DNA of 64,000 bases from assembly GCF_000715075.1 (NCBI RefSeq), contig NC_134095.1, positions 9,906,722-9,970,721 on the forward strand. The letters are read 5' to 3'. Origin of the DNA: Nicotiana tabacum (lineage: Eukaryota; Streptophyta; Magnoliopsida; Solanales; Solanaceae). The notes under the pieces are model-generated. The model was not told the origin of the DNA and searched no databases. It saw only the letters and a list, made by a program, of their open reading frames with translations. Below, piece by piece: positions 6,304-50,166 of this stretch (positions are counted from its first letter, which is position 1; each line of letters opens with the position of its first letter). A program made the translations under genes and the position numbers.

Positions 6304-6950
6304 TGGAAACACGAAGTATTTTCAGACAAAAAACGACTAGACAGGTTTTTTGACCCGACCCTTATTTAGAGAGACCACAAACTAAGAGAAAGGAGAATGT
6401 GACCAAGCCTTGGTATCTGAGCTGCCTACATATCCTTGTCTATAAAGGAATCAGGCCACGTGTAGTTCAGAAGTGAGTGAGATGATGGAGTATACCGAGG
6501 TGGAGAGACGATCGAGGTGCCATTCCGTCGAGGTTCCGGTCCGCGGGCCTGTTATTACATTAAAAGTCAAAAAATGAAAAAGACTATCTAAGCTTGTCAA
6601 CTATGAGTTACAAGATTCCTATCTATAAGTCTTCTGAAGTTTGATCTTGAGTCTTGAATGGTTCTTCATGCAGACTTTAGATTTGAACCTCGACGCTTGC
6701 TAGCTACAGGTGCTAGTTTATTCTTCTTCGGATCAAAACCGGACATACAATGCTCGTGATTTCAGCAATCATGTCTTAAGCAGTTCATAACTATCTCTAC
6801 TTCTGCATTTGGATTCACTTCTTGCCTTTCTTTTTTTTGTTTTTTTTTTCTGGATTGTGACTAACTTTCGTTGATCATCTCGGACTGTTGACCCGTATTC
6901 TTACCGCGAGCTTCTTTTGCTGCTGACTTGAATTGCATTCTGAAGTGAAT
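6304..6950 (-). mobile_element. 3' non-coding region of Tat/Ogre-like element
   Basis: Non-coding element DNA between the polypurine tract and the minisatellite. A module near 6410-6480 (GGTATCTGAGCTGCCTACAT and following) recurs in diverged form at about 12100-12175 and 15610-15680, each beside polypyrimidine runs, suggesting old internal duplications within the element. Confidence 0.5.
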
Positions 6951-8216
6951 TCCCTTATTTTCCAGATGGGCGCCTGATTGCAAAAACTTGAACTATCTTC
7001 TTCGAAACTTGAACTGTCTTCCCTTGTTTTCCAGGTGGGCGCCTGATTGCTGAAACTCGAACTGCTTTCCTTGACACTTAAGCTGCTTTCTCTTGTTCTC
7101 CAGGTGGGTGCCTGATTGCTGAACTTGTATTGTATTCCCTTGTCCTCTAGGTGGGTGCCTGATTGCCAAAACTTGAACTGTATTCCCTTGTCCTCCACGT
7201 GGGTGCCTGATTGTCAAAATTTTAACTGTATTCCCTTCTCCTCCAAGTGGGCACCTGATTGCCAAAACTTGAACTGTATTCCCTTGTCCTCCAGGTGGGC
7301 CGAATTGCCAAAGCTTGAACTGTATTCCTTTGTCCTCTAGGTGGGCACCTGATTGCCAAAACTTGAACTGTATTCCCTTGTCCTCCAGGTGGGCGCCTGA
7401 TTGCCAAAACTTGAATTGTATTCCTTTGTCCTCCAGGTGGGCACCTGATTGCCAAAAGTTTAACTATATTCCCTTGCTCTCCAGGTGGGCGCCTGATTTC
7501 AAAAACTTTAATTGTATTCCCTTGCTCTACAGGTGGGCCCCTAATTGCCAAAACTTGAACTGTATTCCCTTGAAACCTGTGTTGTCTTCCTTTGAAACTT
7601 GAACTGCATTCCTTGTTCTCCAGGTGGGTGCCTGACTGCCAAAACTTGAACTGTATTCCCTCGCTCTCCAGGTGGGCGCCTGATTTCCAAAACTTTTACT
7701 GTTTTTCCTTGAGACTTGAACTGCTTCTCCCTATTCTCTAGGTGGGTTCCTGATTTCTAACACTTGCAATGTTTTTTCTTGCAACTTGAACTTCTTCTCC
7801 TTGTTCTCCAGGTGGATGCCTGATTTCCAACACTTGCACTGTTTTCCCTCGAAACTTGACTTATTTTCCCTTGTTCTCCAAGTGGGCTGCTGATTGCTGA
7901 AATTGAACCGCTTTTCCCTGAAACTTGAGATGTTTTCCCTTGTTCTCCAGGTCGACGCCTGATTACCAACATTTGACTTGTATTCATTTCCTCTAAAACT
8001 TGAATTGTTTTCCCTTGTTTGCTAGGTGGGCGCCTGATTGCACATACTCGAACCATCTTCTCTTGCTACTTGGAACTGTTTTCCCTCGAAACTTGAACTG
8101 TCTTCCCTTGAAACTTGAACTGCTTCCCCTTGTTCTCTAGGTGGGCTCCTGATTTCTGAACTTGAAATGTTTTCTCTTGTTACTTGAAACTGTTTTCCCT
8201 TGAACTTGAACCCTTT
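6951..8216. repeat. 48-bp minisatellite array
   Basis: About 25 diverged units with the core AGGTGGGCGCCTGATTGCC. In the best-kept part (7243-7531) the AGGTGGG element recurs at exactly 48-bp spacing. Towards 7560-8216 units become irregular and mix with shorter CTTGAAACTTGAACTG-type pieces. Because 48 is divisible by three, several frames stay open on both strands and give repetitive 16-residue translations; these are by-products and not proteins. The array lies between gag and the 3' LTR, where Tat/Ogre elements are known to carry hypervariable tandem repeats. It continues at 10297-10375 beyond the solo LTR. Confidence 0.9.
8212..8216. repeat. Target-site duplication CCTTT (left)
   Basis: CCTTT immediately left of the solo LTR, repeated at 10292-10296 on its right. 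A perfect 5-bp duplication, as made by LTR-retrotransposon integrase. Confidence 0.85.
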
Positions 8217-16485: not shown

Positions 16486-17392
16486 ACTTAATATAAATAG
16501 ATTCTTTTTCCATTTTTAGGGCATCAGATATTGTAATAGCATAGCTGCACTCGTGGGTCGACTTTTCTTAGTCATTTTGGGCAACTTTAACTACATTTCT
16601 TCATTGAATCTTTGTATTTAGCTTAGCAATTAAATAATATGTATTTTTCTTCATCTATTTCATGTTTTTCTTCTTTGAATATGAGTAGCTTGACCCCATA
16701 GATAGGGTTGTGGCTCAACCCTACTTTGGGTAATTGATGGGTCTTGTATTATAGGGCTAAATTGATTATGAGTGTTTGATATTTGGGTCAATTTCATGGT
16801 TAATTGTTGAATTAGTGGTTGCAAACACTAGTTTGTGTTTAGTTGACTGAGGCTCTTCTTGAGAAAGAGAGCCTAAGTCTCTGAAATTGATCCAACAAGG
16901 AATTAGGGCGCACTCAAGAGATTGATAGACCCAATTAAAGGATTAAACCTCGAGAGAGTAATACCTGACTTGAACCCTAAGTTGCTTGTGCAAATTTGCA
17001 TACCCAGTTGGTCTTGAGAAAGTCAATCGGGCAAAATCACATGAACCACCGAGAGGTGTAGAGTGGGTAAAGTAGTGCAACGGTTATATCATACTCCCCA
17101 ATCATGTCAATTGTGCCTTAGACTCAAGTACCCGTCAATTGACCACCTAGGCAGATGTCACTACCCTAGTGTCCTTTAAAGTATTTGAACAACCCGTAGC
17201 ATTTAACTCTTAGCTTAATTTACAATTTGTAGTTTGTAAAAAGTATAATTATAAAGAAAACCCCAAAAAATGATGAGAAGTGTAATCTGGAACTCTACGT
17301 AATCCTAATCTAAATAGATACACCACTCAAATTCTAGTTCTCTGTGGAAAACGATCCCGACCCAAAATCGGGTAAAAGCCATTATCACTTTT
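16486..17392 (+). mobile_element. LTR fragment (Athila/Tat-type), from TATA box to 3' end
   Basis: Matches 18640-18950 over its first half and 63260-64000 over most of its length, in plus orientation. It begins about 6 nt before a TATAAATAG box (16492-16500), lacks the upstream U3, and runs to the LTR end just before the primer-binding site. Because homology starts upstream of where transcription should begin, it is not a clean strong-stop cDNA end, although it is close to one. No coding potential. Confidence 0.8.
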
Positions 17393-17467
17393 TGGCGCCG
17401 TTGCCGGGGAACGAACCCGGGTCACCCACGTGACAGGCGGGAATACTTACCACTATACTACAACGAC
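17393..17467 (-). tRNA. Full-length tRNA-Asp(GTC) retro-copy with encoded CCA, fused to an LTR
   Basis: The minus strand is a complete 75-nt tRNA-Asp: acceptor stem GTCGTTG...CAACGGC, discriminator G, then CCA; D arm AGTATAGTGGTAAGTAT; anticodon loop CTGTCAC (GTC anticodon); T arm. Compared with the plant tRNA-Asp consensus from general knowledge it differs at two places: position 40 (C to T, a CpG site, giving a G-T pair) and position 58 (A to T; loop reads TTCGTTC instead of TTCGATC). Nuclear tRNA genes do not encode CCA, and A58 is near-invariant and carries m1A. The plus-strand start, TGGCGCCGTTGCCGGGG, is the usual tRNA-Asp primer-binding site and follows the LTR directly. I infer a reverse-transcribed primer tRNA, not a functional gene; T58 would weaken the B box. 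Confidence 0.88.
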
Positions 17468-17555
17468 CTACTCCTCAAAGCCCACATGGCCTAACACCAT
17501 TGCCATGTGGTCTCCTCAAGGCCCAGGTTCACTTTTTGGCGTTGTTGCCGTGTCA
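17468..17555. mobile_element. Junction debris with a second, decayed primer-binding site
   Basis: Between the tRNA copy and the integrase piece. CCTCAAAGCCCACATGGCC at about 17472-17490 nearly repeats the integrase end at about 17566-17584. CACTTTTTGGCGTTGTTGCC at 17530-17549 repeats the LTR-end/primer-binding-site junction of 17388-17406 with two changes. The block looks like the result of successive template switches. Confidence 0.6.
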
Positions 17556-18299
17556 AGATTAACCTTCCTCAAAGCCCATATGGCCTTGTGCTCCAACTCA
17601 ACCGGTAGATGGCAAGCTTTCCCAAACACCAACCGATACGATGACATACCAATCGGCATCTTGAAAGCAGTTCTATAAGCCCATAGAGCGTCATCCCACT
17701 TCTTCGACCAATCAGTCCTATTTGCATTAACCATCTTGGACAGTATGCTTTTGATTTCCCTGTTGGAGACTTCCACTTGACCACTTGCTTGAGGATGATA
17801 GGGGGTAGAAACTTTATGATTGACATCGTACTTAGAAAGTAATGTGTCGAAAGCTCTATTGCAAAAATGAGACCCCTCATCACTTATGATTGCACGAGGA
17901 GTACCAAACCTTGTAAAAATGTTTTTCTTGAGAAATGCAACAACACTCCGGGCCTCATTGTTGGGCAAAGTCACGGCTTCAACCCACTTTGAAACATAGT
18001 CCACTACCACAAGGATATAAGTGTTCCTACAAGAGCTAACAAATGCACCCATGAAATCAATGCGCCATACATCAAAAATATCAACCTCAAGGATGGTATT
18101 GAGAGGCATCTCATCTTTCTTTGAAATTCCACCCGCTCTTTGGCATTCGTTGCATCTCTTCACAAAGTCACACATATCTTTGAACAAAGTTGGCCAATAA
18201 AACCCATAATTAAGAACTTTAGAAGTCGTCCTCACCCCGCCATGATGACCACCATAGGGAGAGGAATGACAAGACTCCAAATTTGTGCGGTCCACACTA
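17556..18299 (-). pseudogene. Integrase fragment of Athila/Tat-type Ty3/gypsy element
   Basis: About 245 codons are open on the minus strand from 18295. The N-terminal zinc-binding part has GGHHGG followed by CNECQ. The catalytic core shows D in [10 protein letters not shown] in IISDEGSHF and the E in [11 protein letters not shown]. The C-terminal part has the lineage-typical [18 protein letters not shown] segment. Integrase inserts the element cDNA into host DNA. Nothing precedes it (no RT or RNase H) and it lies in inverted orientation between two plus-oriented LTR fragments, so it is an isolated relic. The frame happens to run on to 17516 through junction debris. This is the longest unbroken integrase stretch in the window. 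Confidence 0.88.
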
Positions 18300-18952
18300 G
18301 GAGGTTTAGAGAGTAGGTATTCAGGCTAAAAGACAATGCGGCCACACTCGATTTAGTGCGGTCCGCACTGGAGTCCATGCGACTGCACTACCATTTTGTG
18401 CGGTCCGCAGAGCTAAGATTCAGAGAAGTTGCAGTTTGGAGCTTTCAAGCCAATGCGGTCCGCAGTCCATTTTTGTGCGGACCGCACTAGAAGTCACCGC
18501 TGTCACAGTCCATTCTGTGCGGTCCGCGGAGCCTGAGTTCAGAGGGCTAGATTTTGGAGCCAAGAGTCCTAGTGCAGCCGCAGTCCATTCTGTGCGGTCT
18601 ACACTAACCCCGCAGGGGCTTTTTTATCAAGATTTTTCAACTTAGTATAAATAGATTCTTTTTCTATTTTAGGGCATCAGATATTGTAATAGCATAGCTG
18701 CGCTCGTGGTTCAACTTTTCTTAGCATTTCATCATTGAATCTTTGTATTTAGCTTAGTAATTAATTAATATGTGTTTATCTTCATCTATTTCTTATTTTT
18801 CTTCTTTGAATATGAGAAGCTAGACCCTATAGCTAGGGTCGTGGCTCAACCCTAGTGTGGGTAATTGATGGGTCTTGTATTTTAGGGCTAAATTGATTAT
18901 GGGTGTTTGATATTTGGTTCAATTTCATGGTTAATTGCTGAATTAGTGGGAT
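18300..18952 (+). mobile_element. LTR fragment (Athila/Tat-type) with CpG-palindrome cluster and TATA box
   Basis: Homologous to 62900-63600. At 18340-18620 it carries about ten copies of short CpG-rich near-palindromes of the type GCGGTCCGCAC or GCGGCCGCAC, directly followed by TATAAATAG at about 18648. Its 5' part is missing (it begins beside the integrase relic) and its 3' part is cut at 18952 by the next element. Confidence 0.8.
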
Positions 18953-21185
18953 GGTTAACGAAAAGTTAGGAAGCGGGATTTTGTAACTGAAGTTGTTGCT
19001 TCTGATGTTTCCGCACCTGATGAGTGGGGACCGCAGGTGCAATGATCGCAGACGCAGGAAGTGACCGCAGATGCGAAATTCGTTGCAGGAGCGAAAGTTG
19101 AACCGCACCTGCGAGCCCCCAGGTGCGAGGCCTAGGGCGCAGGTGCGGAAGCTGGTGGGTTAGGTGAGAACCACAAATGCAGTTGTTTTAACCGCAGAAG
19201 TGGTCCTGCAGATGCGGGTAAACGGCCACAGGTGCGAGATGCCTGGGCAGAAAGTATATAAGGAGCCCATCGCGAAATTTGGCCATTCTTCACCATTTTT
19301 CATTCGGATTTTGAGGCTTTTGGAGGGTTTTGAAGAGGGAATCAAGGGGATACTCATTTAAGTAAGTTAATTGAGCTTAATACTTGTGATTATGGTAAAT
19401 TTTAGTTGTTTAAGAATGAAATTAGGGATGAAATTGAGGGGATTAGGGCTTGAAATTGGAGAGTTTGATTTGGGTATTTGAGGGAGCATTTGATGTCAGA
19501 TTTTGATGCATTTGATATGTATATACTCGTGAGTGAAAGGAGTTTCTAGTTTTGTATATTTTGTCAGATTCCAAGATATGGGCCCGGGGGCCGAGTTTGG
19601 GTGAATTTCGGGATTTTGGTATAAATTGATAGTTTTTCGTAAGGAATTGATCCCTTGGACTATATTGATCACATTGTATTTCTTTTAGTTAGATTCGAGA
19701 CATTTGGAGGCCGATTTCAGAGGCAAAGGCATCGCAGAATAGGAATTTGACCGGTTCGAAGTAAGCAATGATTGTAAATCTAGTCCTGAGGGTATGAAAC
19801 CCCGAATTTCACATTGTTTTACTACTTTGAGGTGACACACATGCTAGGTGAGGGCGTGTGGGCGTGTACCATTGGGGATTGTGACTTGATTCGTCCCGTA
19901 GCAACTATTAAGTTGTGTATTTGACTGAAACTATATGATATTTCTGTGTTTTAGAAAGAATTCCTATAAATTTGGGCTGAATGCCATATTTGGGCCTCGT
20001 GCCAAAGTTGTTTGGACCCTTAGGGGCCTTTTATTATTATCCTCTCACTATTTTGATTTAGTATCTATATTCAGTCATGCTATGTTTACTGATTTCATAA
20101 ACTCAGTCTTTATAACCCGATTTGATGCATATAAAATATTATATTAGGCTGAGCACCCTGTTTTTAATGATAGCTCGAGTGGCTTGAGAGGTTTCTGACT
20201 GAGTGAGGCTGAGGGCCTGTGTTGTGAGGATATTATGGGATCGTGATGCGCGCCGCAACATGATGTTACTAATTTATGATTAAGAGAGGCTGATGGCCTG
20301 ATAGATTTATGCCACGAGTTGGCTTGTTATAGCGCTTGGGCTCTAGGAGCCCCTCCGGAGTCTGTAAACCCCTAGTGAGCGCGGGTACCCTAAGTGAGTG
20401 ATATGGTATTTTGCCCGAGGGGCTGCTTTTGATTCATGTTGTGCCTGAGGGGATGTATACGCGTGACTATGAGGTTTTTCCAAGGGGCTAATTCTGAGTG
20501 ATGTTATGCCCGAAGGGCGGTTTATGATTCATGTTTGCCTGAGGGGCTGTTATTGACTTTCATCACTTTTACTCTAAATTGCATTGAACCTCTATTGAAA
20601 CTATTGAAAAATATCTTTAAATGATTCTTTTTTACCGAAATTGGATTTTAAACGAGATGATTTGACTCATATACTGATTTGAAAGCATGTTGTACTTACT
20701 GAGATTTCATAACGTGGATTTTATGTGTTTCTTACTAAGTCTTTATTTACCTTTATTACTTACTGAGTTGGTGTACTCACATTACCCCCTGCACCTTGTG
20801 TGCAGATCCAGAGTTTACTCGACATGCTAGCGAGCATTGATCTTTCATCCATCACAGATATTTTGGAGTTGGCAAGGTAGCTGCACGGCAATCACAGCCT
20901 TGCTCTTCTCCTTCCTATCTTCTTTTAGATATTATTAGTTAATTTCCAAACTATATTTGTCTTAGCATTTTCAGACAGTTTCTAGTAGATTCTCATGACT
21001 TGTGACACTCTAATGTTGGGCTTTTCTTTCCGCACTTTATTATTCAGACTTATATTATAACATTTTATTAATTAATAGCTTAAAGAAACATTCATTTTGG
21101 ATTATCGGGTTGTTTTGGTAAGATAGTCGGCTTTCCTAGTTCCTCGTTAGGCGCCATTACGACATGGTAGATTTGGGTCGTGACA
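18953..21185 (+). mobile_element. 5' LTR (5'-truncated) of Tekay/Del-like chromovirus 1
   Basis: Aligns with the 3' LTR from about 26995 to 29189, so the first ~635 bp are missing. Ends GGGTCGTGACA just before a primer-binding site. A CpG-rich motif cluster (CCGCACCTG, CCGCAGGTGC and variants) spans 19011-19233 and is followed by a TATATAAG box at 19255-19262. Further downstream are repeated GCCCGAGGGGCT units (about 20410-20550). A block at 20812-20920 differs completely from the matching position of the 3' LTR. Confidence 0.88.
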
Positions 21186-21188
21186 AGT

Positions 21189-21200
21189 TGGTATTAGAGC
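21189..21200 (+). other. Primer-binding site of chromovirus 1
   Basis: TGGTATTAGAGC, 3 nt after the LTR; one C to T change from the initiator tRNA-Met complement TGGTATCAGAGC. Confidence 0.85.
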
Positions 21201-21386
21201 CTAGGTTACATAGGTCTCATGGGTCATGAGCAGGTTTAGTAGAGTCTTGCGGATCGGTACAGAGACGCCTGTACTTATCTTCAAGAGGCTGCAGAACCTT
21301 TAGGAAAAATTCCATGTTCTTGAAGTCTTATCGTTCGAATCTGTTGATTCTGGTTACTAAACTTCTATTGTTTCATTATCTCATAG

Positions 21387-22850
21387 ATGGTGAGGACTCG
21401 CACTACCGGACAGGGTGACTAATCACCAGTACTACCAGTTAGGCTCGTGAGGGATCGAGGTCGCGGTCAAGGTCGTGGCAGGGGTAAGGGTGTAGCCCGC
21501 ACTGTAGCCTGGAAAGTACATGTAGACCCTCCCGTTGTTCCAGATCAGGTCCCAGCTGCAGATGCTCCAGCGGGACAAGCTCAGGCACCCCTTATGCCTA
21601 TTGTGATTCCTGGCCTTCAGGAGGCCCTAACTAAGATTCTATCAGTGTGCATTGGCCTGGCTCAGGCGGTCTCAGTCACTACAGCCGCAACTACTTCTCA
21701 ATGAGGGGTAGGCACTCAGACTTTCGCCACTCGCACACCCGAGTTGTTCAGGGGCTTTAGACACTAGGGCACCTTCATCCCAGCCGGTTGTAGCTGCTTA
21801 GGACTATATAGTTCCTGTTATGCCAGAGGATGATCAGCGTAGAGTGGAGAGGTTTGGGAGACTCCAGCCTCCGTCATTTAGTGGTGCTGAGGGTGAGGAT
21901 GCACAGGGTTTCTTGGAAAAGTGCCAGAGGATTCTTTGGACCACAAGTATTCTAGAGACTAATGGGGTCTCATTCACTACCTTCCAGTTCTCTAGGGATG
22001 CACTTAGTTGGTGAGAGTCTCATGAGAGGCGTAGGCCGGTTGGCGCAGCACCCCTTACTTGGCAGCAATTCTCCGTTCTCTTTCTGGAGAAGTTTGTACC
22101 TGAGTCTCGCAGAGAGGAGATGCGTAGGCAGTTCGAGCAGCTTCGCCAGGGTGATATGTCTGTTACACAGTATGAGATGCGGTTCTCCGAGTTGGATCGT
22201 CATGCTGTTTGGTTGGTTCTCACAGACCGAGAGAGGATTAGGAGGTTTATAAATGGCCTCAGTTTTTAGCTTCGGTTACTTATGACCAGAGAGAGGGTGT
22301 CTGGTGCCACTTTCGATGAGGTTGTCGACATTTCTCGATATATTGAGATGGTTCGTGGTTAGGAGAGGGTTGAAAGGGAGGCCAAGAGGCCTCATGGTCA
22401 GGGTGGATTCAGTGGTGCTCCTCATGGGGGTCAGTTCTAGCACGGCAGAGGCCGTCCATTTAGACATGCTAAGTCAGCTCGCCCAGTTCACCGTGGGGCA
22501 TCATCGGGCCATGGTTCTCATAGTTCTCATCAAGGCCATTCATCACTTAGTGCCCCCCAGCCCAGAGTTTGTCCGTGCTCCATCGGTTCAGGGCTTCTCC
22601 ATGCTAGGTTCTTCTACCAGTCATCCTGGTGCTAGGGGTTCCCTTCAGTCCCCGCCACCAGCACCACGTGGTTGTTATAAGTGTGGAGTAGTTTGGGTGT
22701 ATTTGGAGGCAGTGTCTTCGTTGTCTGGGAGGTCCACCTCAATAGAGGAGTCAGCCATCAACTTTAGCACCAGTTACTTCATCACCTGCCCAGTCATTTA
22801 GGGGTGTAGGACATTCAGCTAGGGGTCTCCTTAGAGTAAGAGGTCGATCA
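21387..22850 (+). pseudogene. gag: Broken gag of chromovirus 1
   Basis: Start ATG at 21387 encodes MVRTRTT, the same start as chromovirus 2 (49973 on the minus strand). Capsid similarity follows in pieces: the RRVERFGRLQPPSFSGAEGE stretch near 21835, the TTFQFSRDALSW stretch near 21980, and SVTQYEMRFSELDRHA near 22160. A degenerate zinc-knuckle site begins near 22670 (CYKCG kept, rest lost). The frame is interrupted by TAG at 21799, 22267, 22360 and 22438, each where CAG is expected, by TGA at 22015 and by small frameshifts. No gag product is possible. Confidence 0.85.
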
Positions 22851-23270
22851 GGTGGTGGTCAGGACCGTTTCTATGCACTCCCAGCCAGACCAAATGCTAT
22901 TGCTTCAGATGCTGTGATCACATATATCGTCTCAGTTTGCCACAGGGATGCTTTTGCATTATTTGATCGTGGTTCCATTTTTTCATGTGTCATCATATTT
23001 TGCTCATTATTTGGATATGCCTCGTGAGTCTCTTGTTTTATCTGTTTGTGTATCTACTCTGGTAGGCGATACTATTATTGTAGACCGCGTATATTGGTCT
23101 TGTGTGGTGACTATTGGGGTTCTAGAGACCCGAGTGGAACTTTTGTTGCTTAGTATGGTTGATTTTGATGTGATATTGGGTATGGATTGGTTGTCTTCGT
23201 GTCGTGCTATTCTAGACGTCATGCTAAGATAGTGACGTTGGCTATGCCGGGGGTGTCATGGATTGAGTGG
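22851..23270 (+). pseudogene. Protease region of chromovirus 1
   Basis: Retropepsin-like domain in pieces. The FALFDxGS-type active-site region is at about 22950-22980, where the expected aspartate codon context reads ALFDRGS. It is followed by ARVELLLLSMVDFDVILGMDWL-like sequence at 23120-23190 (VDFDVILGMDWL visible). Frameshifts separate the two halves. The protease would cut the Gag-Pol polyprotein. Confidence 0.75.
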
Positions 23271-23276
23271 TGAGGT

Positions 23277-24760
23277 TTGTCAGATTATGTTCCCAGTAGG
23301 GTAATTTCATTTTTGAAGGCCCAACAGATGGTTGGGAAGGGTTGTCTTTCTTATTTAGCCTTCGTGAGGGATGTTAGTGTAGAGAATCTTACCATTAATT
23401 CAGTTCTGATAGTGAGGGATTTTTCGGATGTGTTTCCTGCAAACCTGTCGGAATGCCACTAGACAGGAATATTGACTTCGGTATTGATTTGGTACCAGGA
23501 ACTCAGCCTATTTCTATTCCACCATATCGTATGGTACCGGCGGAGTTAAAGGAATTGGAGGAGCAGCTTCAGGAACTCCTTGATAAGGGATTCATTCGGC
23601 CTAGTGTGTCATCTTGGGGTGCGCATGTTCTATTTGTGAAGAAGAAGGATGACACAATGAGGATGTGTATTGATTACAGGTAGTTGAACAAAGTCACAAT
23701 CAAGAACAAGTATCATTTGCCTCGTATTGATGATTTATTTGACCAGCTTCAGGGGGCAAGAGTGTTCTCCAAGATTGATCTCAGGTCAGGGTATCACCAG
23801 TTGAAGATTAGGGACTCAGGCATTCTTAAGACAGCTTTCAGGACCCGATATGACCATTATGAGTTCCTTGTGATGTATTTTAGGCTAACCAATGCCCCAG
23901 CGGCGTTCATGCATTTGATGAATAACGTGTTTCGACCTTATCTTGACTAGTTTTTTATTATTTTCATTGATGATATTCTGGTGTACTCATGTAGTCAGGA
24001 GGAGCACATTGAGCATTTGAGAGTTGTAGTGCAACAGTTGCGGGAGGAGAAGCTTTATGCAAAGTTTCCAAGTATGCGTTTTGGCTCAGTTTAGTGGCGT
24101 TCTTGGGGCACGTGGTGTCCAGTGAGGGTATTCAGGTTAATCCAAAGAAGATAGAGGCGGTTTAGAGTTGGCTCAGACCATCCTCAGCCACAGAGATTCA
24201 CAGCTTTCTTGGGTTAGTAAGTTATTATCGTCAGTTCGTTTAGGGATTTTCATCTATTTCATCACCCTTGACCAAATTGACCCAAAAGGGTGCTCCTTTC
24301 AGGTGGTCAGATGAGTGTGAGGCAAGCTTTCAGAAGCTCAAGACCGCCTTGACCACATCTCCAGTGTTAGTTTTGCCATCAGTTTTAGGTTCTTATACGG
24401 TATATTGTGATGCTTCTCGGATTAGTATTGGGTGTGTGTTAATGCAGGAGGGTAGAGTGATTGCTTATGCTTCTCGTCAGTTGAAGCCCCATGAGAAGAA
24501 CTACCCTGTTCATGATTTGGAGTTGGATGCCATTGTCTACGCGTTGAAGATTTGGAGGCATTATCTCTATGGTGTGTCTTGTGAAGTGTTTACTGATCAT
24601 CATAGCCTCCAACACTTATTCAAATAGAAGGATCTCATTTTGAGGCAGCGGAGATGGTTAGAGATACTAAAGGACTATGATATTACTATTTTGTACCATC
24701 CGGGAAAGGCTAATGTCATGGTCGATGCCTTGAGTAGGAAGGCGGTGAGTATGGGCAGTT
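23277..24760 (+). pseudogene. pol: Reverse transcriptase-RNase H region of chromovirus 1
   Basis: RT motifs appear in order: [15 protein letters not shown] and [12 protein letters not shown] (23470-23550), [16 protein letters not shown] (23630-23680), [16 protein letters not shown] (23760-23815), [15 protein letters not shown] (23880-23925), and FIDDILVYS with the catalytic DD at about 23965-23990. RNase H follows with [15 protein letters not shown] (24400-24450), [20 protein letters not shown] and the [11 protein letters not shown] segment. Stops TAG at 23681, 24162, 24241 and 24625 replace glutamine codons seen intact in chromovirus 2, and a 1-nt loss near 24067 shifts the frame. The order (RT-RH-INT-chromodomain) defines Ty3/gypsy. 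Confidence 0.92.
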
Positions 24761-26345
24761 TTGCATTTATTCACGTTGGGGAGAGACCTCTTGCAGTTGA
24801 TGTTTAGGCCTTGACCAATCGTTTTATGAGGTTGGATATTTCGGAGCCCAGTCGGATCCTAGCTTGTGTGGTTTCTCGGTCTTCCTTGTTTGATCGTATC
24901 AGAGAGTGCCAGTATGATGATCCTCATTTGATTGTCCTCAAGGACAGAGTTCAGCACGAGAGGCCAGAGATGTGACTATTGGTGATGATGGGGTATTGAG
25001 GATGCATGGCCGGATATGTGTGCCCAATATAGATGGGCTTCGGGAGTTGATTCTGGAGGAAGCCCATAGCTCGCAATATTCCATGCATCTGGGTGCTACG
25101 AAGATGTATCAGGACTTGGGACAACACTATTGGTGGAGGAGAATGAAGAAAGATATAGTGGAGTTTGTAGCTCGGTGTCTCAATTGTCAGCAGGTGAAAC
25201 ATAAGCATCAGAGACAGGGTGGCTTGCTTCAGCAAATGGATATTCCAGAGTGGAAGTGGGAGTAGATCACCATGGATTTCGTAGCTGGACTCCCACGGAC
25301 TTTGAGGAAGTTCGATGCTATTTGGGTGATTGTGGATCGACTGACCAAGTACATGCACTTCATTCCTATGTGTATTACCTATTCTTCAGAGCGGTTAGCT
25401 GAGATTTATATCCGAGACATTGTTTGCATGCATGGCGTTCCAGTTTCTATCATATCAGATATAGGTACTCAATTTACATCGTAGTTTTGGAGGGTCGTGC
25501 AACGAGAGTTGGGTACTCAGGTTGAGATGAGCACAACTTTTCACCCTCAGATGGACGGATAGTCCGAGCGCACTATTCAGATATTGGAGGACATGTTGCA
25601 CGCCTGTGTTATTGATTTCGGGGGTTCATGGGACCAGTTTCTACCGCTCGCAGAGTTTGCATACAACAACAGTTATCAGTCGAGTATTCAGATGGCTCCA
25701 TATGAGGCTTTATATGGGAGACAGTGTAGATCTCCAGTAAGTTGGTTTGAGCCGGGCGAGGCTAGGCTTTTGGGTACAGACTTGGTGCAGGATGCTTGAG
25801 ACAAGGTGAAAGTGATTCAGGAGCGGCTTCATATAGCTCAGTCAAGACAAAAGATTTATGCTGACAGAAAGGTCGGGATGGGTCTTACATGGTTGGGGAG
25901 AAGGTTCTATTGAAGGTTTCACCCATGAAGGGTGTTATGAGATTCGAGAAGAAGGGAAAATTGAGCCCTTGGTTCATTCGACCTTTTGAGGTGTTTCAGA
26001 GGATTGGGGAGGTAGCTTATGAGCTTGCTTTTCCACCTAGCTTGTTGGGTATGCATCTGGTATTTCATGTTTCCATGCTCCAAAAGTATGTCAGCGATCC
26101 GTTTCATGTTTTGGATTTCAGTACGGTTTAGTTAGATGGTGATTTGACTTATGATGTGAGCCAGTGGATATTTTGGAGCGGCAGTCCGAAAGTTAAAATC
26201 AAATGATATATATTTAGTTAAAGTGTAGTGGATAGGTCGGCCCATGGAGGAGGCTGCTTGGGAGACCGAGCGGAAGATGCGGAGCAGATATCCACAACTG
26301 TTTGAGGCTTCAGATATGTTTCTAGACTCGTTCGAGGACGAACGT
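24761..26345 (+). pseudogene. pol: Integrase-chromodomain region of chromovirus 1
   Basis: The H2C2 zinc-binding domain is visible at 25060-25190 (HSSQYSMHLG...RCLNCQQVK). The catalytic core has D in MDFVAGL (25272), D in IISDIGTQFTS (25455) and E in SERTIQILEDM (25565). The C-terminal segment is MVGEKVLLKVSPMKGVMRF (25889) to HVSMLQKYV. A chromodomain remnant near 26235-26310 has EEAAWETERKMRSRYPQLFE, the basis for calling this a Tekay/Del-type chromovirus. Stops at 24805, 25263, 25482 and 25560 and several frameshifts inactivate it. Confidence 0.88.
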
Positions 26346-26351
26346 TTGTTT

Positions 26352-26361
26352 AAGAGGGGAA
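26352..26361 (+). other. Polypurine tract of chromovirus 1
   Basis: AAGAGGGGAA immediately before the 3' LTR, in the position and composition of the plus-strand primer. Confidence 0.75.
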
Positions 26362-29189
26362 TGATATAACGGTCCGGCCGGTCATATCGTGAATTATAGC
26401 CCTGTTTCCCCCATTTCTGCTTCTTTAAGTGTTCTTCAGCTGTATTTCATCGTATCGTGTTGGTTGGTTGGGTTCGGAGTAGTTTCAGTGTAGAATGAGA
26501 TACTTAGTCTCCTATTTAGAAGTTTAAGTAGGAAAAATCAACCGGATGTTGACTTATGTGCAAATGATCTCGGATGTGAATTCTGATGGTTCGGTTAGCT
26601 CCGTTAAGTGATTTTGGACTTAGGAGCGTATTCAAAACGTGATTTGGAGGTTCGTGGTAGAATGAGATTTGAATTGGTGAAATTGGAAATTTGGCGACTT
26701 TCGGCCGACAGTGAAAATTTTGATATCGGAGTCGGAATGGAATTTCGAAAATTGGAGTAGGTCCGTAGTGTCATTTGGGGCGTGTGTGTAACATTTCAGG
26801 TCATTAAGATGTATTTTAGTAAGTTTTGGCATCATTTGCGGAATTTGAAATTTTGGAAATCCTTAGGCTTGAATCCGGGAGTATTTCAGTGTTTCGATGT
26901 TGTTTTGAGTGTCCCGTAGGTTCGACTAAGTTTGTATGTTGATATGTTACGTGTTGGTATATTTGGTTGAGGCCCCGAGGGGCTTGGGAAGATTTCGGAT
27001 GGTTAACAGAAAGTTTGGAGTGGGATTTTGCAGCTGAAGTTGCTGCTTCTGATGTTTCCGCACCTGAGGAGTGGGGACCGCAGGTGTGATGATCACAAAC
27101 GCACGAAGCAACCACAGATGCAGAATTTGTCGCAAGAGCGAAAGTTGGACCGCACCTGCGAGCCCGCAGGTGCGAGGCCTGGGGCGTAGGTGCGGAAGCT
27201 GGTGGGTTAAGTGAAAACCACAGATGCGGTTTTTTTTACCGCATAAATGGTCTCGCAGATGCGGGTAAAGGACCGCAGGTGCGGGATGCTTGGGCAAAAA
27301 GTATATAAGGAACCCTTCGCGAATTTTGGCCATTCTTAACCATTTTTCATTCATATTTTGAGGATTTGGAGGGTTTTGAAGAGGGAATCAAGGGGATACT
27401 CATTGAGGTACGTTACTTGAGCTTAATACTTGTGATTATGGTAAATTTCAGTTGTTTAAGCATGAAATTAGTAGAAATTAGGGATGAAATTGAGGGGATT
27501 AGGGCTTGAAATTGGAGAGTTTGATTTGGGGATTTGAGGGACCATTTGATGTCGGATTTGGATAAATTTGGTATGTATAGACTCGTGAGTGAAATGAGTT
27601 TCTAGTTTTGTGATTTTTTCGGATTCCGAGACGTGGGCCTGGGGGCCGGGTTTGGGTGAATTTTGGGATTTTGGTATAAATTGATAGTTTTCGTAAGGAA
27701 TTGATCTCTTAACTAATATTGATCACATTGTATTGCTTTTGGTTAGATTCGGGACATTTGGAGGCCGATTCCAAAGGCAAGGGCATCGCGGAATAGGGAT
27801 TTGACCTGTTCGAGATAAGTAATGATTGTAAATCTTGTCCTGAAGGTATGAAACCTCGGATTTTATATTGTTTTACTACTTTAAAGTGACGCACATGCTA
27901 GGTGACGGGCATGTGGGTGTGTACCGTTGGGGTTGTGACTTGGTCCGTCCCGTAGAAACTATTAAGTTGCGTATTTGACTGAAACTATATGATATTTCTG
28001 AGTTTTAGAAAGAATTCCTATAAATTTGGACTGAATGCCATATTTGCGCCTCGTGCCAACGTTGTTTGAACATTTAGGGGCCTTTTCTTATTATCCTCTC
28101 ACTGTATTGATTTAAGATCTATACTCAGTCATGCTATGTTTACTGATTTCATAAACTCAGTCTTTATTGCCCGATTTGATTCATATAAAATGTTATTTTG
28201 GGATGAGCCTCTATTTTTATTTATAGCTCGAGTGGCTTGAGAGGTTTCTGACTGAGTGAGGCCGAGGGCCTATTTGTGAAGATATTATGGGATCGTGTTG
28301 CGCGCCGCAACATGATGTTACTGATTTATGATTATGAGAGGCCGAGGGCCTGATTGATTTATCCCACGAGATGGTTTGTTATAGCGTTTGGGTTGTAGGA
28401 TCCCCTCCGGAATCTGTACACCCCCAGTGAGCGCGGGTACCTTGAGTGAGTGGTATAATATTTTGCCCGAGGGGCTGTTCTTGATTCATGTTGTGCCCCA
28501 GGGGCTGTATACAAGTGACTGTGAGGTCTGCCCGAGGGGCTAATTCTGAGTGATGTTATGCCCGAGGGGCGGTTTATGATTCATGTTTGCCCGAGGGGCT
28601 GTTTATGATTTTCATCACTTTTACTCTAAATTGAATTGAACCCCTGTTGAAACAATTGAAAAATATTTTTAAATGATTTTTTTTACCGAAATTGGATTTT
28701 AAACGAGATGATTTGACTCATATACTGATTTGAAAGCATGTTGTACCTACTGAAATTTCATGACGTGGATTTTATGTGTTTTTTACTGCTCAGTCTTTGT
28801 TTACCTTTATTACTTACTGAGTTGGCGTACTCACATTACTCCCTATACCTTGTGTGCAGATTCAGGTATTTCTGAACCCGGTAGTGGGTGTTGATCACTA
28901 ACTGGTAGATTCTCCCTCCTATCTTCCTTTAGATATTATTAATTAATTTTCAAACTGTATTAGTCTTAGCATTTTTAGACAGTTACTAGTAGATGCTCAT
29001 GACTTGTGATACCCCGATGTCGAACTTTTCTTTCCGCACTTTGTTATTCAGACTTATATTAAAATGTTTTGTTAATTAATAGCTTAAAGAAACCTTCATT
29101 TTGGATTATCGGGTTGTTTTGGTAAGATGGTCAGCTCGCCTAGTTCCTCGTTAGGAGCCATCACAACAAAGTAGATTTGGGTCGTGACA
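26362..29189 (+). mobile_element. 3' LTR of chromovirus 1
   Basis: 2828 bp, starts TGATATAACGG, ends GGGTCGTGACA. The CpG-rich motif cluster lies at 27059-27283 and is followed by TATATAAGG at about 27302, mirroring the 5' copy. The U5-side GCCCGAGGGGCT repeats are at about 28465-28605. No 5-bp TSD can be tested because the 5' LTR is truncated. Confidence 0.9.
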
Positions 29190-29942
29190 TATTTGGCAAG
29201 AAACCAGTGTATCTGAGGGATTTTTCTTTGATGTGAATCATGACAACTTTTTGATGAAATCCATATATATGCTCCGGTTATGGAGAGAACTTGCTAGTTG
29301 AGAGCTTGAATAAAATTATAAAGAGAGGAACTGTACTACGTACTCTATACTTCTTTATTTTCTATATTTACTTTGTTTCATATTTATTCACTTTTTTACT
29401 GTACCTGATATTATTGGACCACTAGTAAGTGTCGGAGTCGACCTCTCACCACTACTTCTTCGAGGTTAGACTGGATATTTACTGAGTACGCGTTGTTTTC
29501 GTACTCATACTATACTTGTTGTACATTTTGTTGTGTAGACACATGCATGGCTAGTGGCCTAGTGGGCGCAGCGGCATGATTGACATGGGGACCTAGGTGA
29601 GCTGCATCTTATGTACGATCCACAGCCAGCAAAGTCTCCTTCAGAGTATTTGTATTTCTTTTTTTGTCCAAGTTTGGATTCCGGATAGTTATTGTATTTT
29701 ATTTTATTTTCTAGTAAATGCTCATGCGTTTGTGACACCGGTTCTGGGATGATTATGGGATATTTAGAATTAAAATTGGAAAACGTTATTATTATTCTTT
29801 AAAGTTCATCTTTTACTAGTTAAATTGAGAAAAATTTATGATTTCAGAAATATGAAAAATGAGAGATTAACTATTTATTGTGGCTTGCCTAACAGTAGTG
29901 TTCGGCGGCATCACGATCTTTAATGGATTTTGTGTCATGACA
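29190..29942 (+). mobile_element. Orphan 3' part of a chromovirus-type LTR
   Basis: Aligns with 1030-1792, from the AGCCAGTGTATCTGAGG-like start to a TGACA end at 29942. It has no primer-binding site after it. It abuts the 3' LTR of chromovirus 1, so that element probably integrated into this older LTR. The left half that should lie before 18953 is gone. Confidence 0.75.
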
Positions 29943-42332: not shown

Positions 42333-44885
42333 TGTCACGACCCATTTCCGTAATAGGTCATGAAGGCACCCGACACCAATGCCAGGCAAGCCAACGTGGA
42401 AACATAATTAAATTCTTATATTGCTTTTATCAGAAACAAGTAAAGTAGATGCTACAATTTAGATTTAAAACCAGGAGTGATCAATAATGTATATAACCCG
42501 ATTATACAATCCAGAATAAATGTCTACTAATGTGTGTGCCAAGACCTGGTGTCACAAGTATATGCATCTAGTAGAATATACAAAAGAATGTCTCTATCCT
42601 ACTGTCTGAGATAGAAAAGACAGAAAAAGTAAGAAAAGACTCCATCCGGCTGTAGAAAGACATAGGAAGGAAACAGCTCATCGTGGAAGTCCCGGTCACT
42701 AAATCAGGGGCGCGCACCAGACTGGTAACCAGATATACCTGCCTCAGATCCTGTACAATTAAGTACAGAATGTAGTATGAGTATATAAACAATATATACC
42801 CAGTAAGTATCCCGCCTAATCTCGAAGAAGTAGAGACGAGAGGTCAACTTGATACTTACTAGGGTCAAAATAATATGATAAAGTGTTATGCTAAGCATGA
42901 GGATCACCAGTAATCAACAGTTTATAACGAAAAGCAATAATCATGTTCTTGACCATATTTCGGTTAGCCATTTACATTTCAAAATACTTAACAAAACAAG
43001 TCATGAATAAGATTTCGCATAAATATCATGTGCACATTATGCCGAGGTCAACGGCCCGCTCCAACAGAAAATTAACTGTGCACTGCCGAGGGTCGAACAA
43101 CGCGAACCATAGATGCATCTATTTACACCGAGGCGATTGGCCCGATCCATAAATATCAAAAAACATCAATAATACACACAAAGGCGCATTTATATACAAA
43201 TAGATTCTTACAAGAGTTCAACAAGTTCACATGTTCACCTTTATTTCTTTCCAAGTCTCTAACATATCATAAATGATCAAATTAGCAAGTTAATATGTAG
43301 ATATTCACAGTTTAGGCATGATGTGGGTCCTAATCTACCCAAGCAGTTAACGTCATAGTAGCTACGCACGGACTCTCGTCACCTAGTGCGTACGTAGCCC
43401 CCGCATTTAGTAGCAATTTTCTCAATTATTATACCTATGGGGACAATTCCCTCTTACAAGGTTAGAAAAGATACTCACCTCGCTCCAAGCGCACTTTCAA
43501 ATATCAAGAACAAGTCCAAGCCCTCAATTCAGAGTCGAACAATCCCAAACTAGTTAAATAAAGTAAGAACTAGTCAATATAGACTCACAAGATCGAATAT
43601 TAACTATTTAAGCAATTTCCCACCTTTAAACACAAGTTTCCTAAATTCTGACCCCGGGCCCACGTGCCCGGATTTCGAGATTTTTGAAGGAAGTTGTTCT
43701 CTACAACCTAAGGATCAATAATATATGATTCCTAATTCATTTCATAATAATTTCGTGGTTAAATCTAAGTTTTATTAAAACCCTAGGTCTTGCTATAACC
43801 CCTTGACTTTTACCTAATTTCTAGTGTTTAATCTATCTAATATACAAGTAATAAACTAAAGATAGATGGAATAAACTTACCTCACAATGCTAAGTGGAAG
43901 TCTCCTCTCCAAAGCTTCCAAAATCGCCAATGGAGGAGTGTATAAGTGATAAAAATGGTATTGAACTCGTATTAAATGAACCTCATTGCCTAGCGATTTC
44001 CACATCTGCGGTCAGGGGACCGCATCTGTGAAAAGGGGAGGGAAAGCTGGGACTGCATCTGCGGTCTCAGGGCCACATCTGTGGAGCCGCATTTGCGATT
44101 TCCTGACCTGGCCACCTGGGCCGCTTCTGCGATGGAAGAACCGCATCTGCGGTCCAAGAATCGCAGATGCGGTTATGGCAGAAGCAGCAATCCTTCAGCC
44201 TTTTTCCAAATTTCCACTTCACTCGAGCATTGTCCGTTTGACGCTCGGGGCTCACAGGCCCCGTCCGAACATACCGACAAGTCTGAAATCACAAGGCGGA
44301 CCTACTCGAACCTTCAGAACACTCAAAACAATGCCAAATCTAGAAATCATCCCCTAAAACCAAATGAATCAAATTAATGAACTTCATGTTCTTAATTTCC
44401 CTCTAACGGGCCAAAATGCCCTTAAACTACTCGGATTGACACCAAATTTTATAGGCAAGTCTTAAATGGTATTTCGAACCTATACCAGGTTTCAGAACCA
44501 AAATATGAGCCCGATACCTAGGAAATCAATGATTACTTAATTTCTTTAAATCCTTAAAACTTCAAATTAACAATTTCTAATAAAAATTCATTACTCGGGC
44601 TAGGGACCTCGAAATTCGATCCCGGGCATATGCCCAGGTCCCATATTTTCCCACGAACCCTCCGGGACCGTCAAATCATGGATCCGAGTCTGTTTGCTCA
44701 AAATATTGACCAAAGTCAAACTTAGTCTTTTAAGAGAATCTTAAAGAATCAAATTGACATATTCAACTCTTCCAATTCCCAAACTTACCGTCCCCGCAAG
44801 TCGTAAATTAGCTAAGGCAAGCACGGGAAGTTTTATTTAAGGGAACATGGTCCTAGAAGGCAAAACGACTAGCTGGGTCGTTACA
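42333..44885 (-). mobile_element. 3' LTR of Tekay/Del-like chromovirus 2
   Basis: 2553 bp; on the minus strand it starts TGTAACGACCC and ends GGTCGTGACA. Close match to 50167-52734 across the full length, so the insertion is younger than its neighbours. Contains the tandem GATCGGGCC..CTCGG-type block at about 43040-43140 and a CpG-rich cluster of CCGCATCTGCGG-type motifs at about 44000-44180. Confidence 0.92.
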
Positions 44886-44899
44886 TTCTCCACCTCTTA
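44886..44899 (-). other. Polypurine tract of chromovirus 2
   Basis: The minus strand reads TTAAGAGGTGGAGAA directly before the LTR start TGTAACGACC. The same sequence recurs outside the other LTR at 52735-52748. Confidence 0.8.
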
Positions 44900-46500
44900 A
44901 ATAAACGTTCGTCCTCGAACGGACATAGAAAAGTACCTGAACTACTGAATAAATGGGGATATCTGCTCTGCATGTCCTCCTCGAACTCCAGGTCTCCTCC
45001 TCAACTGGTTGGCCCCTCCACTGGACCCTCACCGCAGAAATCCTCTTGGACCTCAACTAGCGATCCTATATATCAATAATGGCAACTAGCTCCTCCTCGT
45101 AACCCAAACTCTCATCCAGCTAGATAGTACTGTAGTCCAACACATGGGATAGGTCGACGTGATACTTCCGAAGCATCGATACATGAAAAATTAGATGAAC
45201 TCCCGATAAGCTGAGGGGTAAAGCAAGCTCATAGGCAACCTCCCCAACTCGCCGCAACACCTTAAAGGGACCAATAAACCTTGGGCTCAACTTGCCCTTC
45301 TTCCCGAACCTCATAATGCCCTTCATTGGCGAGAATTTCAAGAGAACCTTCTCGCCAACCATAAATGATACATCACGTGCCTTCTGATCCACGTAACTCT
45401 TCTACCTGTACTGAGCTGTGTGAAGCCTCTCATGAATCAACTTTACCTTATCCAAGGCATCCTGTACCAAATCTGTACCGAGTAACTTAGCCTCACCCGG
45501 CTCAAACCACCTAATAGGAGAACGACAACGTCGACCGTATAAAGCCTCGTACGTAGCCATCTCTATGTTGGACTGATAGCTGTTGTTGTACGCAAACTCC
45601 GCTAAAGGCAAGAACTGATCCCATTGCCCCCCAAAGTCAATCACACATGCTCTAAGTATATCCTCTAAAATCTAAACCGTCCTCTCCGACTGCCCGTCGG
45701 TCTTAGGATGGAATGTTGTGCTAAGCTCTACACGGGTCCCCAAATCACTCTGAATGGCTCTCCAGAAATGGGAAGTGAACTGAGGGCCTCTGTCCTATAT
45801 GATGGAAACAGGCACACCGTTCAACTAGACTATCTCCCGAATATAAACCTGAGCATACCTCTCCGCTGTATAGGTAGTCGCAACTGGAATGAAGTGAGAC
45901 GACTTGGTCAACCTATCCACAATGACCCATACTGAATCAAACTTCCGCAAAGTCCGTGGCAACCCAACTACGAAATCCATGGTGATGCGCTCCCACTTCT
46001 ACTCCGGAATAGGCATCTACTGAAGTAGTCCACCCGGTCTCTGGTGCTCATACTTGACCTGCTGGCAATTCTAACATTTAGCCACATACTCCACTATGTC
46101 CTTCTTCATTCTCCGCCACCAAATATGTTGCCTCAAGTCACAATACATCTTTGTGACACCTAAATGAATGGAATACCACGAACTGTGGGCCTCCTCTAGA
46201 ATCCTCTCTCAAACTATCAACATTAGGAACACATAGACGACCCTGAAGCTGCAAAACACCATCCTCGCCAATAGAAACCTCCTTGGCACCTCCCTGAAGT
46301 ACCGTCTCTCTGAGAACCGCCAAATGTGGATCATCAAATTGTCGGGCCTTGATCTTCCCCAATAAAGAAAATTGAGCCACTACGCACGCAAGAACTCGGC
46401 TGGGCTCTAAAATGTCCAACCTCACAAGTCTGTTAGCCAAGGACTGAATGTCCAAAGCTAGTGGCATCTCCCCTGCTGGAATGAATGCCAAACTACCCAT
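44900..46500 (-). pseudogene. pol: Integrase-chromodomain region of chromovirus 2
   Basis: From 46500 the frame covers the RNase H-integrase spacer (SLANRLVRLDILEPSR). It is followed by the broken zinc-binding and catalytic core, then WDQFLPLAEFAYNNSYQ (45625) and the MVGEKVLLKFSPMKGIMRF segment (45360). A chromodomain remnant at 45040-44960 has VRVQWRGQPVEEETW. Stops at 45402-45404, 45672-45674, 46017-46019 and 46071-46073 (plus-strand CTA) all replace expected CAG codons. This element is less decayed than chromovirus 1 but cannot make integrase. Confidence 0.88.
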
Positions 46501-46503
46501 ACT

Positions 46504-47925: not shown

Positions 47926-47929
47926 ATGT

Positions 47930-48542
47930 CAAGCCTTCAGGAAAGAAATAACCCGACTAGGTGTATCAACTGTGGAACCCTTCTACTCCAACCTCGGCAA
48001 CCCTGGCATCACTAGTGAAACAGTCTTGGCATGGCAATCTAGGACGACGTGATATGGAGATAACTATACATGCCCAGGATGACCTCAAAATCGATCATAT
48101 CAAGCAATAGAAGATCTGCTCTAGTCTCTAAACCACAGAAGGTGACCACACAGGACCGGTAGATCCAATCCACAACCACAGAATCACCCACAGGAGTGGA
48201 CACATGAACAGGAGTGCCCAAAGGCTCAGGAGAAATAACCAAGAAATGAGCAAACAGAGACGATACATATGAATAAGTATACCCTGGATCAAATAGTACC
48301 GAAGCATCCCTACCACCGACGGAAATAATACCTGTGATAATGGTATTTGAGGCCAATGCATCTGGCCTGGCCGGAAGGGCATAGAATCTGGCTGGAACGT
48401 CGGCTGGCTGGCCTCCACTTGATTGAGCAGTAGTTGGCTGACCTCTCCCTGCCTGGCCTCCACCTCTAGGACGGCCTCTACCAGCCTGCCCTCCACCTCT
48501 AGGTGGCTGGGCAACTGGTGCTGAAATCATGGGCTGCTGACC
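47930..48542 (-). pseudogene. Protease and Gag C-terminus of chromovirus 2
   Basis: A frame from 48530 holds a Gly/Arg/Gln-rich stretch (RGGGQAGRGRPRGGG) and then a retropepsin-like domain: ASVLFDPGYTYSYVSS (active-site aspartate kept, but the usual GAT/GS context is altered to DPGYT), VVDWIYRSCVVT and MIDFEVILGM, after which the frame is lost near 48060. The change in the active-site loop suggests a dead protease. Confidence 0.78.
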
Positions 48543-49973: not shown

Positions 49974-50151
49974 CTGTGAGTGAATAGAAGAGGGAAATTT
50001 AGTACACCAACCATTGCACGATAGAAATGAATAAAGAGTAGTCTTTCCTAATACCCTATAGCCTCTCGAAGATAAATACAGATATCTCTGTACCGATCTA
50101 CAAGACTCTATTAGGTTTGCCCATGACTTGTGAGACATACGTGAACATAGT

Positions 50152-50163: not shown

Positions 50164-50166
50164 TGT

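What the first reader, a model, noticed from the sequence alone, without database searches (positions are those of the whole stretch)
17393..17467. Complete primer tRNA-Asp reverse-transcribed into an LTR junction, with an m1A58 misreading scar
Seen: the sequence after the LTR is not just an 18-nt primer-binding site but a full 75-nt tRNA-Asp complement, including CCA. It differs from the plant consensus at position 58 (A to T) and position 40 (C to T at a CpG). Established: eukaryotic nuclear tRNA genes do not encode CCA; LTR-element plus-strand synthesis normally stops at m1A58 after copying 18 nt; RT passing m1A often misincorporates so that A appears as T. Inference: RT read through the whole primer, mis-copied m1A58, and the product was integrated. 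The chance of the one loop change falling on this base is low.
Basis: partly seen in the sequence, partly recalled or inferred. Interest (0 to 1): 0.92.

Follow-up and report, generated by a model that had tools for sequence, protein, structure and literature searches.

The report
Retrotransposon that copied its tRNA primer
A plant jumping gene copied the whole transfer RNA that normally only starts its DNA synthesis, and this window, like about two dozen other places in the same genome, still carries that copy fused to the jumping gene's end, in a few cases changed at exactly the base whose chemical modification is thought to stop the copying.

Summary
In detail: 17393-17467 is a complete 75-nt tRNA-Asp complement with CCA, 5 nt after an LTR end, with T58 and T40. 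It is not a tRNA gene: the 16 nuclear tRNA-Asp genes that I read all have A58 and no CCA. Nor is it unique: the host genome (4.0 Gb, tobacco-like) holds at least 24 distinct LTR-CCA-tRNA-Asp fusions in several LTR lineages. The five loci with a whole LTR pair in view have exact 5-bp target duplications, so read-through DNA was completed and integrated. After the tRNA the joins differ: repeated LTR, internal region, inverted LTR or, in the window, an antisense integrase patchwork. Two joins share CGAC with the tRNA copy's end; one fits fold-back priming, 40 of 43 nt. Position 58 is changed in 4 of 24 (three A>T, one A>G), above other A/T positions (permutation P 0.001; P 0.0045 without the window). 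A>T is what m1A followed by U predicts (PMC4787781). But 20 of 24 keep A58 and nt 30 changes as often, so the scar is probable, not proven.

The parts
16486..17387 (+). LTR A, left-truncated: TATA box (16492), R and U5, ends ...ATCA
   Evidence: 86% to 63274-64000 and 86% to 18640-18949; 83% to the 5' LTR of complete element L031; TATA at 16492
17388..17392 (+). CTTTT spacer between LTR end and PBS
   Evidence: sequence; the same or a similar T-rich spacer in the other fusions
17393..17410 (+). 18-nt primer binding site (complement of tRNA-Asp 3' end incl. CCA, positions 76-59)
17393..17467 (-). complete tRNA-Asp(GUC) + CCA as DNA (read on - strand)
   Evidence: ARAGORN, Rfam RF00005, column table
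17411..17411 (-). position 58: T instead of A (suspected m1A58 misreading)
   Evidence: the 16 nuclear genes read have A58; 4 of 24 fusions changed here
17428..17428 (-). position 40: T instead of C, CpG decay
17468..17492 (-). short filler, then an integrase 3'-end copy in antisense (17472-17492, 20 of 21 nt identical to 17566-17586)
17482..17510 (.). inverted repeat CCACATGGC ... GCCATGTGG in the patchwork
17529..17552 (+). second LTR-end + short PBS stub (24 nt, 21 identical to 17385-17408), joined to antisense integrase
17516..18325 (-). open frame, integrase zinc-binding + catalytic core (captured in antisense to the LTRs); its last codons run over the stub
   Evidence: Pfam PF17921, PF00665; relatives in Nicotiana
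18284..18949 (+). LTR B, left part, cut at 18949 by another element

Best explanation
This is a fossil of failed termination in reverse transcription. Plus-strand strong-stop DNA of a tRNA-Asp-primed LTR retrotransposon should stop before m1A58, after copying 18 nt of primer. Here the enzyme ran on to the primer's 5' end and made LTR + complete tRNA complement. At position 58 it probably put dATP opposite m1A (A>T). The 3' end, now the complement of the tRNA 5' end, no longer matched the minus-strand PBS copy, so normal second-strand transfer failed. The end was rescued by switching to another template through short matches (LTR, internal region, sense RNA) or by folding back on the PBS through the acceptor stem. 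The finished, rearranged DNA was integrated. Shown: the fusions, the absence of CCA and T58 in the genes read, target duplications in complete kin, varied joins, two CGAC matches, one fold-back. Inferred: m1A58 in this tRNA, misincorporation at that base, and that the window copy itself came in by integrase. The confidence given is for read-through of the primer; for the T58 of the window being an m1A scar I would say about 0.6.
For:: of 40 scored places (979 first-look candidates), 18 are LTR+TGG+tRNA fusions, the window included, and 22 are gene-like tRNA-Asp matches without TGG (16 of them read base by base); of 40 scored places (292 candidates), 9 further fusions; 29 tRNA copies, 24 distinct events after dropping 5 rows; 16 genes read, all A58, none with TGG; two isodecoders (A20a, G20a). 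Six of 26 fusion rows (5 events) carry the G20a type, so primers were captured separately; exact 5-bp duplications in the five loci with a whole LTR pair (L031 ACGCG, L034 AGTAC, L035 TTGGT, L040 CCTAC, L041 ATGTC). CGAC shared at the L034 and L033 joins. L050 downstream sequence matches the predicted fold-back product, 40 of 43 nt, from the predicted base; position 58 changed in 4 of 24 events against 9 of 611 cells at other A/T columns. (PMC4787781, section 27 read): 5'-m1A-U-3' gives efficient dATP misincorporation, read as T; tRNA-Asp has A58-U59. (PMC13191261, passages): plus-strand strong stop at m1A58, and full copying when the tRNA is unmodified.
Against: 20 of 24 read-through copies keep A58, so either those primers were unmodified or bypass is mostly faithful. 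The query itself carried T58 and could favour T58 copies; in the set, whose query had A58, position 58 is changed in 2 of 15 (P 0.03). Another column, nt 30 in a CpG, is changed in 6 of 26 rows, which is 4 of the 24 strict events, three of them transversions, with no modification known to me there. Modification of tRNA-Asp in this plant is assumed. The window copy has no visible target duplication. Not all joins show matches: L039 has 1 nt, L032, L031 and L035 none clear, and ten events have no identified template. The 24 events differ in locus, join or base changes, but their independence is not proven.
Confidence: 0.9

Rival explanations
1. Read-through is right, but T58 in the window is an ordinary later point mutation (or the primer lacked m1A58 and was copied faithfully, mutating afterwards).
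For: 20 of 24 fusions have A58; the related LTRs are 83-86% identical, so random changes are expected; nt 30 is changed in as many strict events, 4 of 24.
Against: Three separate A>T changes and one A>G at this one base against 9 changes in 611 cells at other A/T columns (permutation P 0.001); A>T is the product predicted by the m1A-U context.
Confidence: 0.35
2. A nuclear tRNA-Asp gene was there first, and the LTR arrived beside it, or the PBS recombined with the gene; CCA came from the PBS.
For: The PBS and the gene share 15 nt, so recombination could give LTR-TGG-gene. ARAGORN accepts the sequence as a tRNA.
Against: Where it could be placed, the sequence after the tRNA 5' end is integrase, LTR or internal sequence, whereas the genes mostly have a CTTG/TTGTTG-type flank. 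At least 24 different fusions. Complete elements carry the tRNA inside their LTR pair with target duplications. T58 would break the B box (recalled).
Confidence: 0.03
3. One element captured the tRNA once and spread it; the fusions share one ancestor.
For: Some copies are clearly shared: the L002/L003/L005 array, L049 and L052, two units in L044.
Against: Different LTR lineages, different downstream joins immediately after the tRNA, different extents (51 to 75 nt), two isodecoders.
Confidence: 0.04
4. A self-primed, reverse-transcribed tRNA was inserted at the LTR end independently of priming, as proposed for HIV tRNA-Gly by Gurgo and Franchini.
For: PMC12220202 (outline, abstract, passages and background section seen) describes a retrotranscribed tRNA-Gly beside a provirus.
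Against: Here it is the element's own primer species, in register with the PBS after the LTR spacer, in the 24 events; but the searches were made with tRNA-Asp only, so fusions with other tRNAs would not have been seen.
Confidence: 0.03

Closest known systems
[quoted passage not shown]
   Same: a DNA copy of a tRNA lies at an LTR end; interpreted as a reverse-transcribed primer
   Different: an unintegrated retroviral circle and a spurious primer; here the element's regular primer in germline insertions, some complete with target duplications, many events
HIV-1 plus-strand strong-stop over-extension products (P1-P5 in PMC13191261, passages)
   Same: the same step, the same stop base, full copying to the tRNA 5' end when the stop fails
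   Different: test-tube and infected-cell products; the full-length product is said not to be an active template, whereas here such products were completed through other joins and integrated
Plant OTA (Ogre/Tat/Athila) Ty3/gypsy elements with tRNA-Asp PBS (PMC6317226, passages)
   Same: tRNA-Asp primer, 5-bp target duplication; integrase of rve/H2C2 type in the window
   Different: that survey looked for matches to tRNA 3' ends, and the passages I saw speak of complete tRNAs as primers but report no complete tRNA copies in elements
alt-EJ-assisted second-strand transfer (Yang et al. 2023, seen only as cited in PMC12786077)
   Same: short matches join the plus strand to another strand at the PBS step
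   Different: there the PBS itself is the match; here the end of an over-long tRNA copy

Membership tests
Read-through plus-strand strong-stop product (primer tRNA copied into provirus) | tRNA complement begins with CCA complement directly after the LTR/PBS spacer | tested here: met
Read-through plus-strand strong-stop product (primer tRNA copied into provirus) | copy continues past position 58 | tested here: met
   the window copy has all 75 nt; the 24 events reach 51 to 75 nt (shorter ones would have escaped the queries); 13 reach nt 1 exactly, 2 miss it by one base, 9 stop 3-24 nt short
Read-through plus-strand strong-stop product (primer tRNA copied into provirus) | genomic tRNA genes lack CCA and T58 | tested here: met
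   16 of 16 genes read; 6 more listed were not read
Read-through plus-strand strong-stop product (primer tRNA copied into provirus) | integrase footprint (target duplication) | tested here: inconclusive
   met in the 5 kin with a whole LTR pair in view; not testable for the window copy, whose LTR is truncated
m1A58 misincorporation scar | change at 58 more frequent than at other A/T positions, mainly A>T | tested here: met
   4 of 24, permutation P 0.001; P 0.0045 without the window, 0.03 in the set, whose query had A58; but the non-A/T column nt 30 is changed in as many strict events
m1A58 misincorporation scar | m1A58 present in this plant's tRNA-Asp | not testable with these tools
   no modification data held
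Nuclear tRNA-Asp gene | no encoded CCA, A58, gene-type flank | tested here: not met
Ty3/gypsy LTR retrotransposon | LTR pair, TG...CA, 5-bp target duplication, integrase | tested here: inconclusive
   LTR pair and duplication met in kin and integrase present in the window; the window element has two unequal truncated LTRs
Athila lineage | RT/IN tree placement | not tested
   name recalled from PBS type and LTR length only

The most novel reading that the evidence does not exclude
Primer read-through is a recurrent side route of retrotransposon replication in plants. The over-long plus strand uses the tRNA 5'-end complement as a microhomology or fold-back primer, producing LTR-tRNA-LTR tandems, palindromes and internally deleted elements that integrate normally. 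The genome thereby keeps a datable record of the primer's identity (isodecoder) and of its base modification (m1A58 as A>T).
Probability: 0.45. Interest if true: 0.85.

Novelty: new variant of a known kind. Interest (0 to 1): 0.74.

Why it matters
The m1A58 stop is known from test tubes and infected cells. Here its failures can be counted in a plant germline, at different ages (LTR pairs 92.5 to 98.9% identical), in elements that still integrated. It gives a way to ask from DNA alone which primer isodecoder was used, how often the stop fails, and what happens next. It also offers a source for multi-LTR, inverted and deleted elements, and touches the old idea that tRNA-derived repeats can begin as a primer tRNA joined to strong-stop DNA (recalled).

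Tried and rejected
Rejected: a tRNA gene with a neighbouring LTR (no gene flank, no CCA in the genes read, at least 24 fusions); a single captured copy spread by transposition (different joins, extents, isodecoders); a SINE (no one shared body after the tRNA). Considered whether LTR A is minus strong-stop DNA, because it starts near the TATA box; left open, since it begins 6 nt before TATA and not at an expected RNA start.

Led nowhere: two viral contigs pattern scans found nothing (the tool says records near the window's genome may be left out). Pfam on two open frames of L034 and L041 gave no family. Literature searches listed no paper that by title or opening abstract describes complete primer-tRNA copies in plant proviruses; the library lacks most subscription papers.

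Mistake: and the unanswered searches used L041 coordinates on the wrong strand. therefore returned flanking repeats, and in L057-L076 no tRNA copy was found. A note claiming an amplified family was retracted, and nothing from it is used.

Not done for lack of answers: a pattern census of all fusions, queries for two further LTR lineages, other primer tRNAs (initiator Met) as a control, and counts of normal PBS copies. The figure of 24 events is a lower bound, and the fraction of all elements is unknown.

Full report
What is there. At 17393-17467 the minus strand reads a complete tRNA-Asp(GUC) with CCA. On the plus strand it follows an LTR end (..TTATCA) after a 5-nt spacer, exactly where a primer binding site lies. 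The first 18 nt are the ordinary tRNA-Asp PBS; the other 57 nt should not be there. Two bases differ from the nuclear genes: T for A at position 58 and T for C at position 40.

The surroundings. LTR A (16486-17387) starts 6 nt before its TATA box, so its left part is missing. Related LTR sequence lies at 18284-18949 and 62698-64000. After the tRNA comes a short filler, then a 21-nt piece that also occurs (20 of 21) in the antisense integrase frame just downstream, an inverted repeat, and a second stub of LTR end plus short PBS (21 of 24 nt) that leads into the integrase. The frame 17516-18325 (-) has the zinc-binding and core domains, and its relatives include Nicotiana proteins (best 120 of 7864 listed). 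LTR B is cut at 18949 by another LTR element.

The genome. The window lies in a 4.0-Gb assembly of 700 contigs. No tool names it; size and protein hits suggest tobacco. A search with the junction scored 40 of 979 candidates: 18 are LTR+TGG+tRNA fusions (window included) and 22 are gene-like tRNA-Asp matches without TGG. A second search, with another fusion, scored 40 of 292 and added nine fusions. I tabulated 29 tRNA copies. Five rows were dropped before counting events: two array copies beside L042, L052 (same six changes as L049), and the second units of L033 and L044. This leaves 24. They differ in locus, LTR, join or base changes; strict independence is not proven.

Genes as control. Fifteen genes read are identical to each other over 72 nt, have A58 and C40, no TGG, and other flanks. 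A sixteenth (L056) differs by G at 20a. The other six matches were not read. Six of 26 fusion rows (five events; one row does not reach this base) carry the G20a type, so more than one isodecoder served as primer.

Integration. In five of the fetched stretches self-comparison shows a whole LTR pair. All five have an exact 5-bp duplication: ACGCG, AGTAC, TTGGT, CCTAC, ATGTC. Their LTR pairs are 92.5 to 98.9% identical. The tRNA is therefore part of DNA that integrase inserted, at different times. Thirteen LTR starts were looked at; two (L036, L042) follow a purine-rich tract and so look like 3' LTRs, the rest look like insertion borders (judged by eye).

What follows the tRNA. L034: 282 nt of LTR end, then a normal PBS. 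L039: about 825 nt of LTR, then PBS. L033: about 465 nt of LTR and a second tRNA copy whose CCA complement is not preserved. L044: LTR-tRNA-LTR-tRNA-LTR-PBS. L047 and L051: the last nucleotides of U5 and PBS (by eye). L037: a PBS 30 nt on. L032: inverted LTR. L050: inverted LTR end. L035: integrase in sense after a few tens of unplaced bases. L031, L041 and (after about 270 unplaced bases) L040: internal region. Window: antisense integrase. For ten events (L036, L038, L042, L045, L046, L048, L049, L053, L054, L055) no template was established; L036 runs into copia-like sequence by eye. At the joins where a template was laid beside the product, L034 and L033 share CGAC with the tRNA copy's 3' end, L039 shares 1 nt, and L032, L031 and L035 share nothing clear. 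In L050 the copy's end can pair with the PBS as the acceptor stem did in RNA; copying back from there predicts the next 43 nt, and 40 match, from the first base.

Extent. Of 24 events, 13 end exactly at tRNA nt 1, two one base short (L031, L050), and nine stop 3 to 24 nt short. Copies that stop soon after 58 would have been missed by these queries.

Position 58. Changed in 4 of 24: window, L031 and L050 A>T, L049 A>G. At the other 27 A/T columns (column 55 left out as isodecoder difference) there are 9 changes in 611 cells; binomial P 0.0004, permutation P 0.001, and P 0.02 that any A/T column would reach four. Without the window, which raised the question, 3 of 23, P 0.0045. In the set, whose query had A58, 2 of 15, P 0.03. 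Against this: 20 of 24 keep A58; nt 30, a CpG base, is changed in 6 of 26 rows, or 4 of the 24 strict events, three of these transversions, and two further C/G columns reach four rows. PMC4787781 (section 27 read) reports that m1A followed by U leads to efficient dATP misincorporation, read as T; tRNA-Asp has U after A58. That the primer bears m1A58 in this plant is assumed from its general conservation (PMC13191261, passages).

Mechanism. According to PMC13191261 (passages), copying normally ends before m1A58; an unmodified tRNA is copied to its 5' end, and the full-length product is not a working intermediate. The fusions show how such products can still be finished: the over-long 3' end is used as a primer elsewhere. 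PMC12786077 (passages) reports that alternative end-joining uses microhomology for second-strand transfer, which would suit the CGAC joins. This last link is inference.

Prior work. PMC12220202 (outline, abstract, passages, background section) describes a retrotranscribed tRNA-Gly beside an HIV provirus and cites Colicelli and Goff for a tRNA-Gly copy between LTRs of an MMLV circle. So the kind of event is known. A survey of plant elements (PMC6317226, passages) gives tRNA-Asp as primer in 6% of elements and mentions no complete copies in the passages seen. Searches listed no report of such copies in plants. I rate it a new variant of a known kind.

The odds of the plain-mutation rival were raised from 0.33 to 0.35 for the nt-30 count.

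Noticed in passing
18949-29196: A gypsy-type element with long LTRs (18949-20811 vs 26997-28865, 89%) cuts LTR B at 18949.
   Followed up: partly
L044 3212-5682 (reverse strand): Triple LTR with two full tRNA copies: LTR-tRNA-LTR-tRNA-LTR-PBS, the first 25 nt after both tRNA copies identical.
   Followed up: partly
L042/L043 (C5:138456000-138475800): Tandem array of three LTR-tRNA-internal units, about 6.5 kb each, about 96% identical, with an inverted LTR piece in one unit.
   Followed up: partly
L036 3365 onward: A fusion whose LTR follows a purine-rich tract and whose tRNA copy runs into copia RT-like coding sequence (by eye): tRNA perhaps kept at the right end of a cDNA.
   Followed up: no
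tRNA nt 30 in L031, L047, L049: G>T transversion at the same base in three fusions, CpG context, no modification known to me; cause unexplained.
   Followed up: no
L049 and L052: Same six changes in the tRNA copy on two chromosomes (C11, C17) but different sequence soon after: one fusion later duplicated or recombined.
   Followed up: no
6933-8211: Long minisatellite array (48/69/70-nt units, GGTGGGCGCCTGATTG core).
   Followed up: no
42333-52224: Two blocks 7.84 kb apart, 91-94% identical, probably another LTR pair.
   Followed up: no
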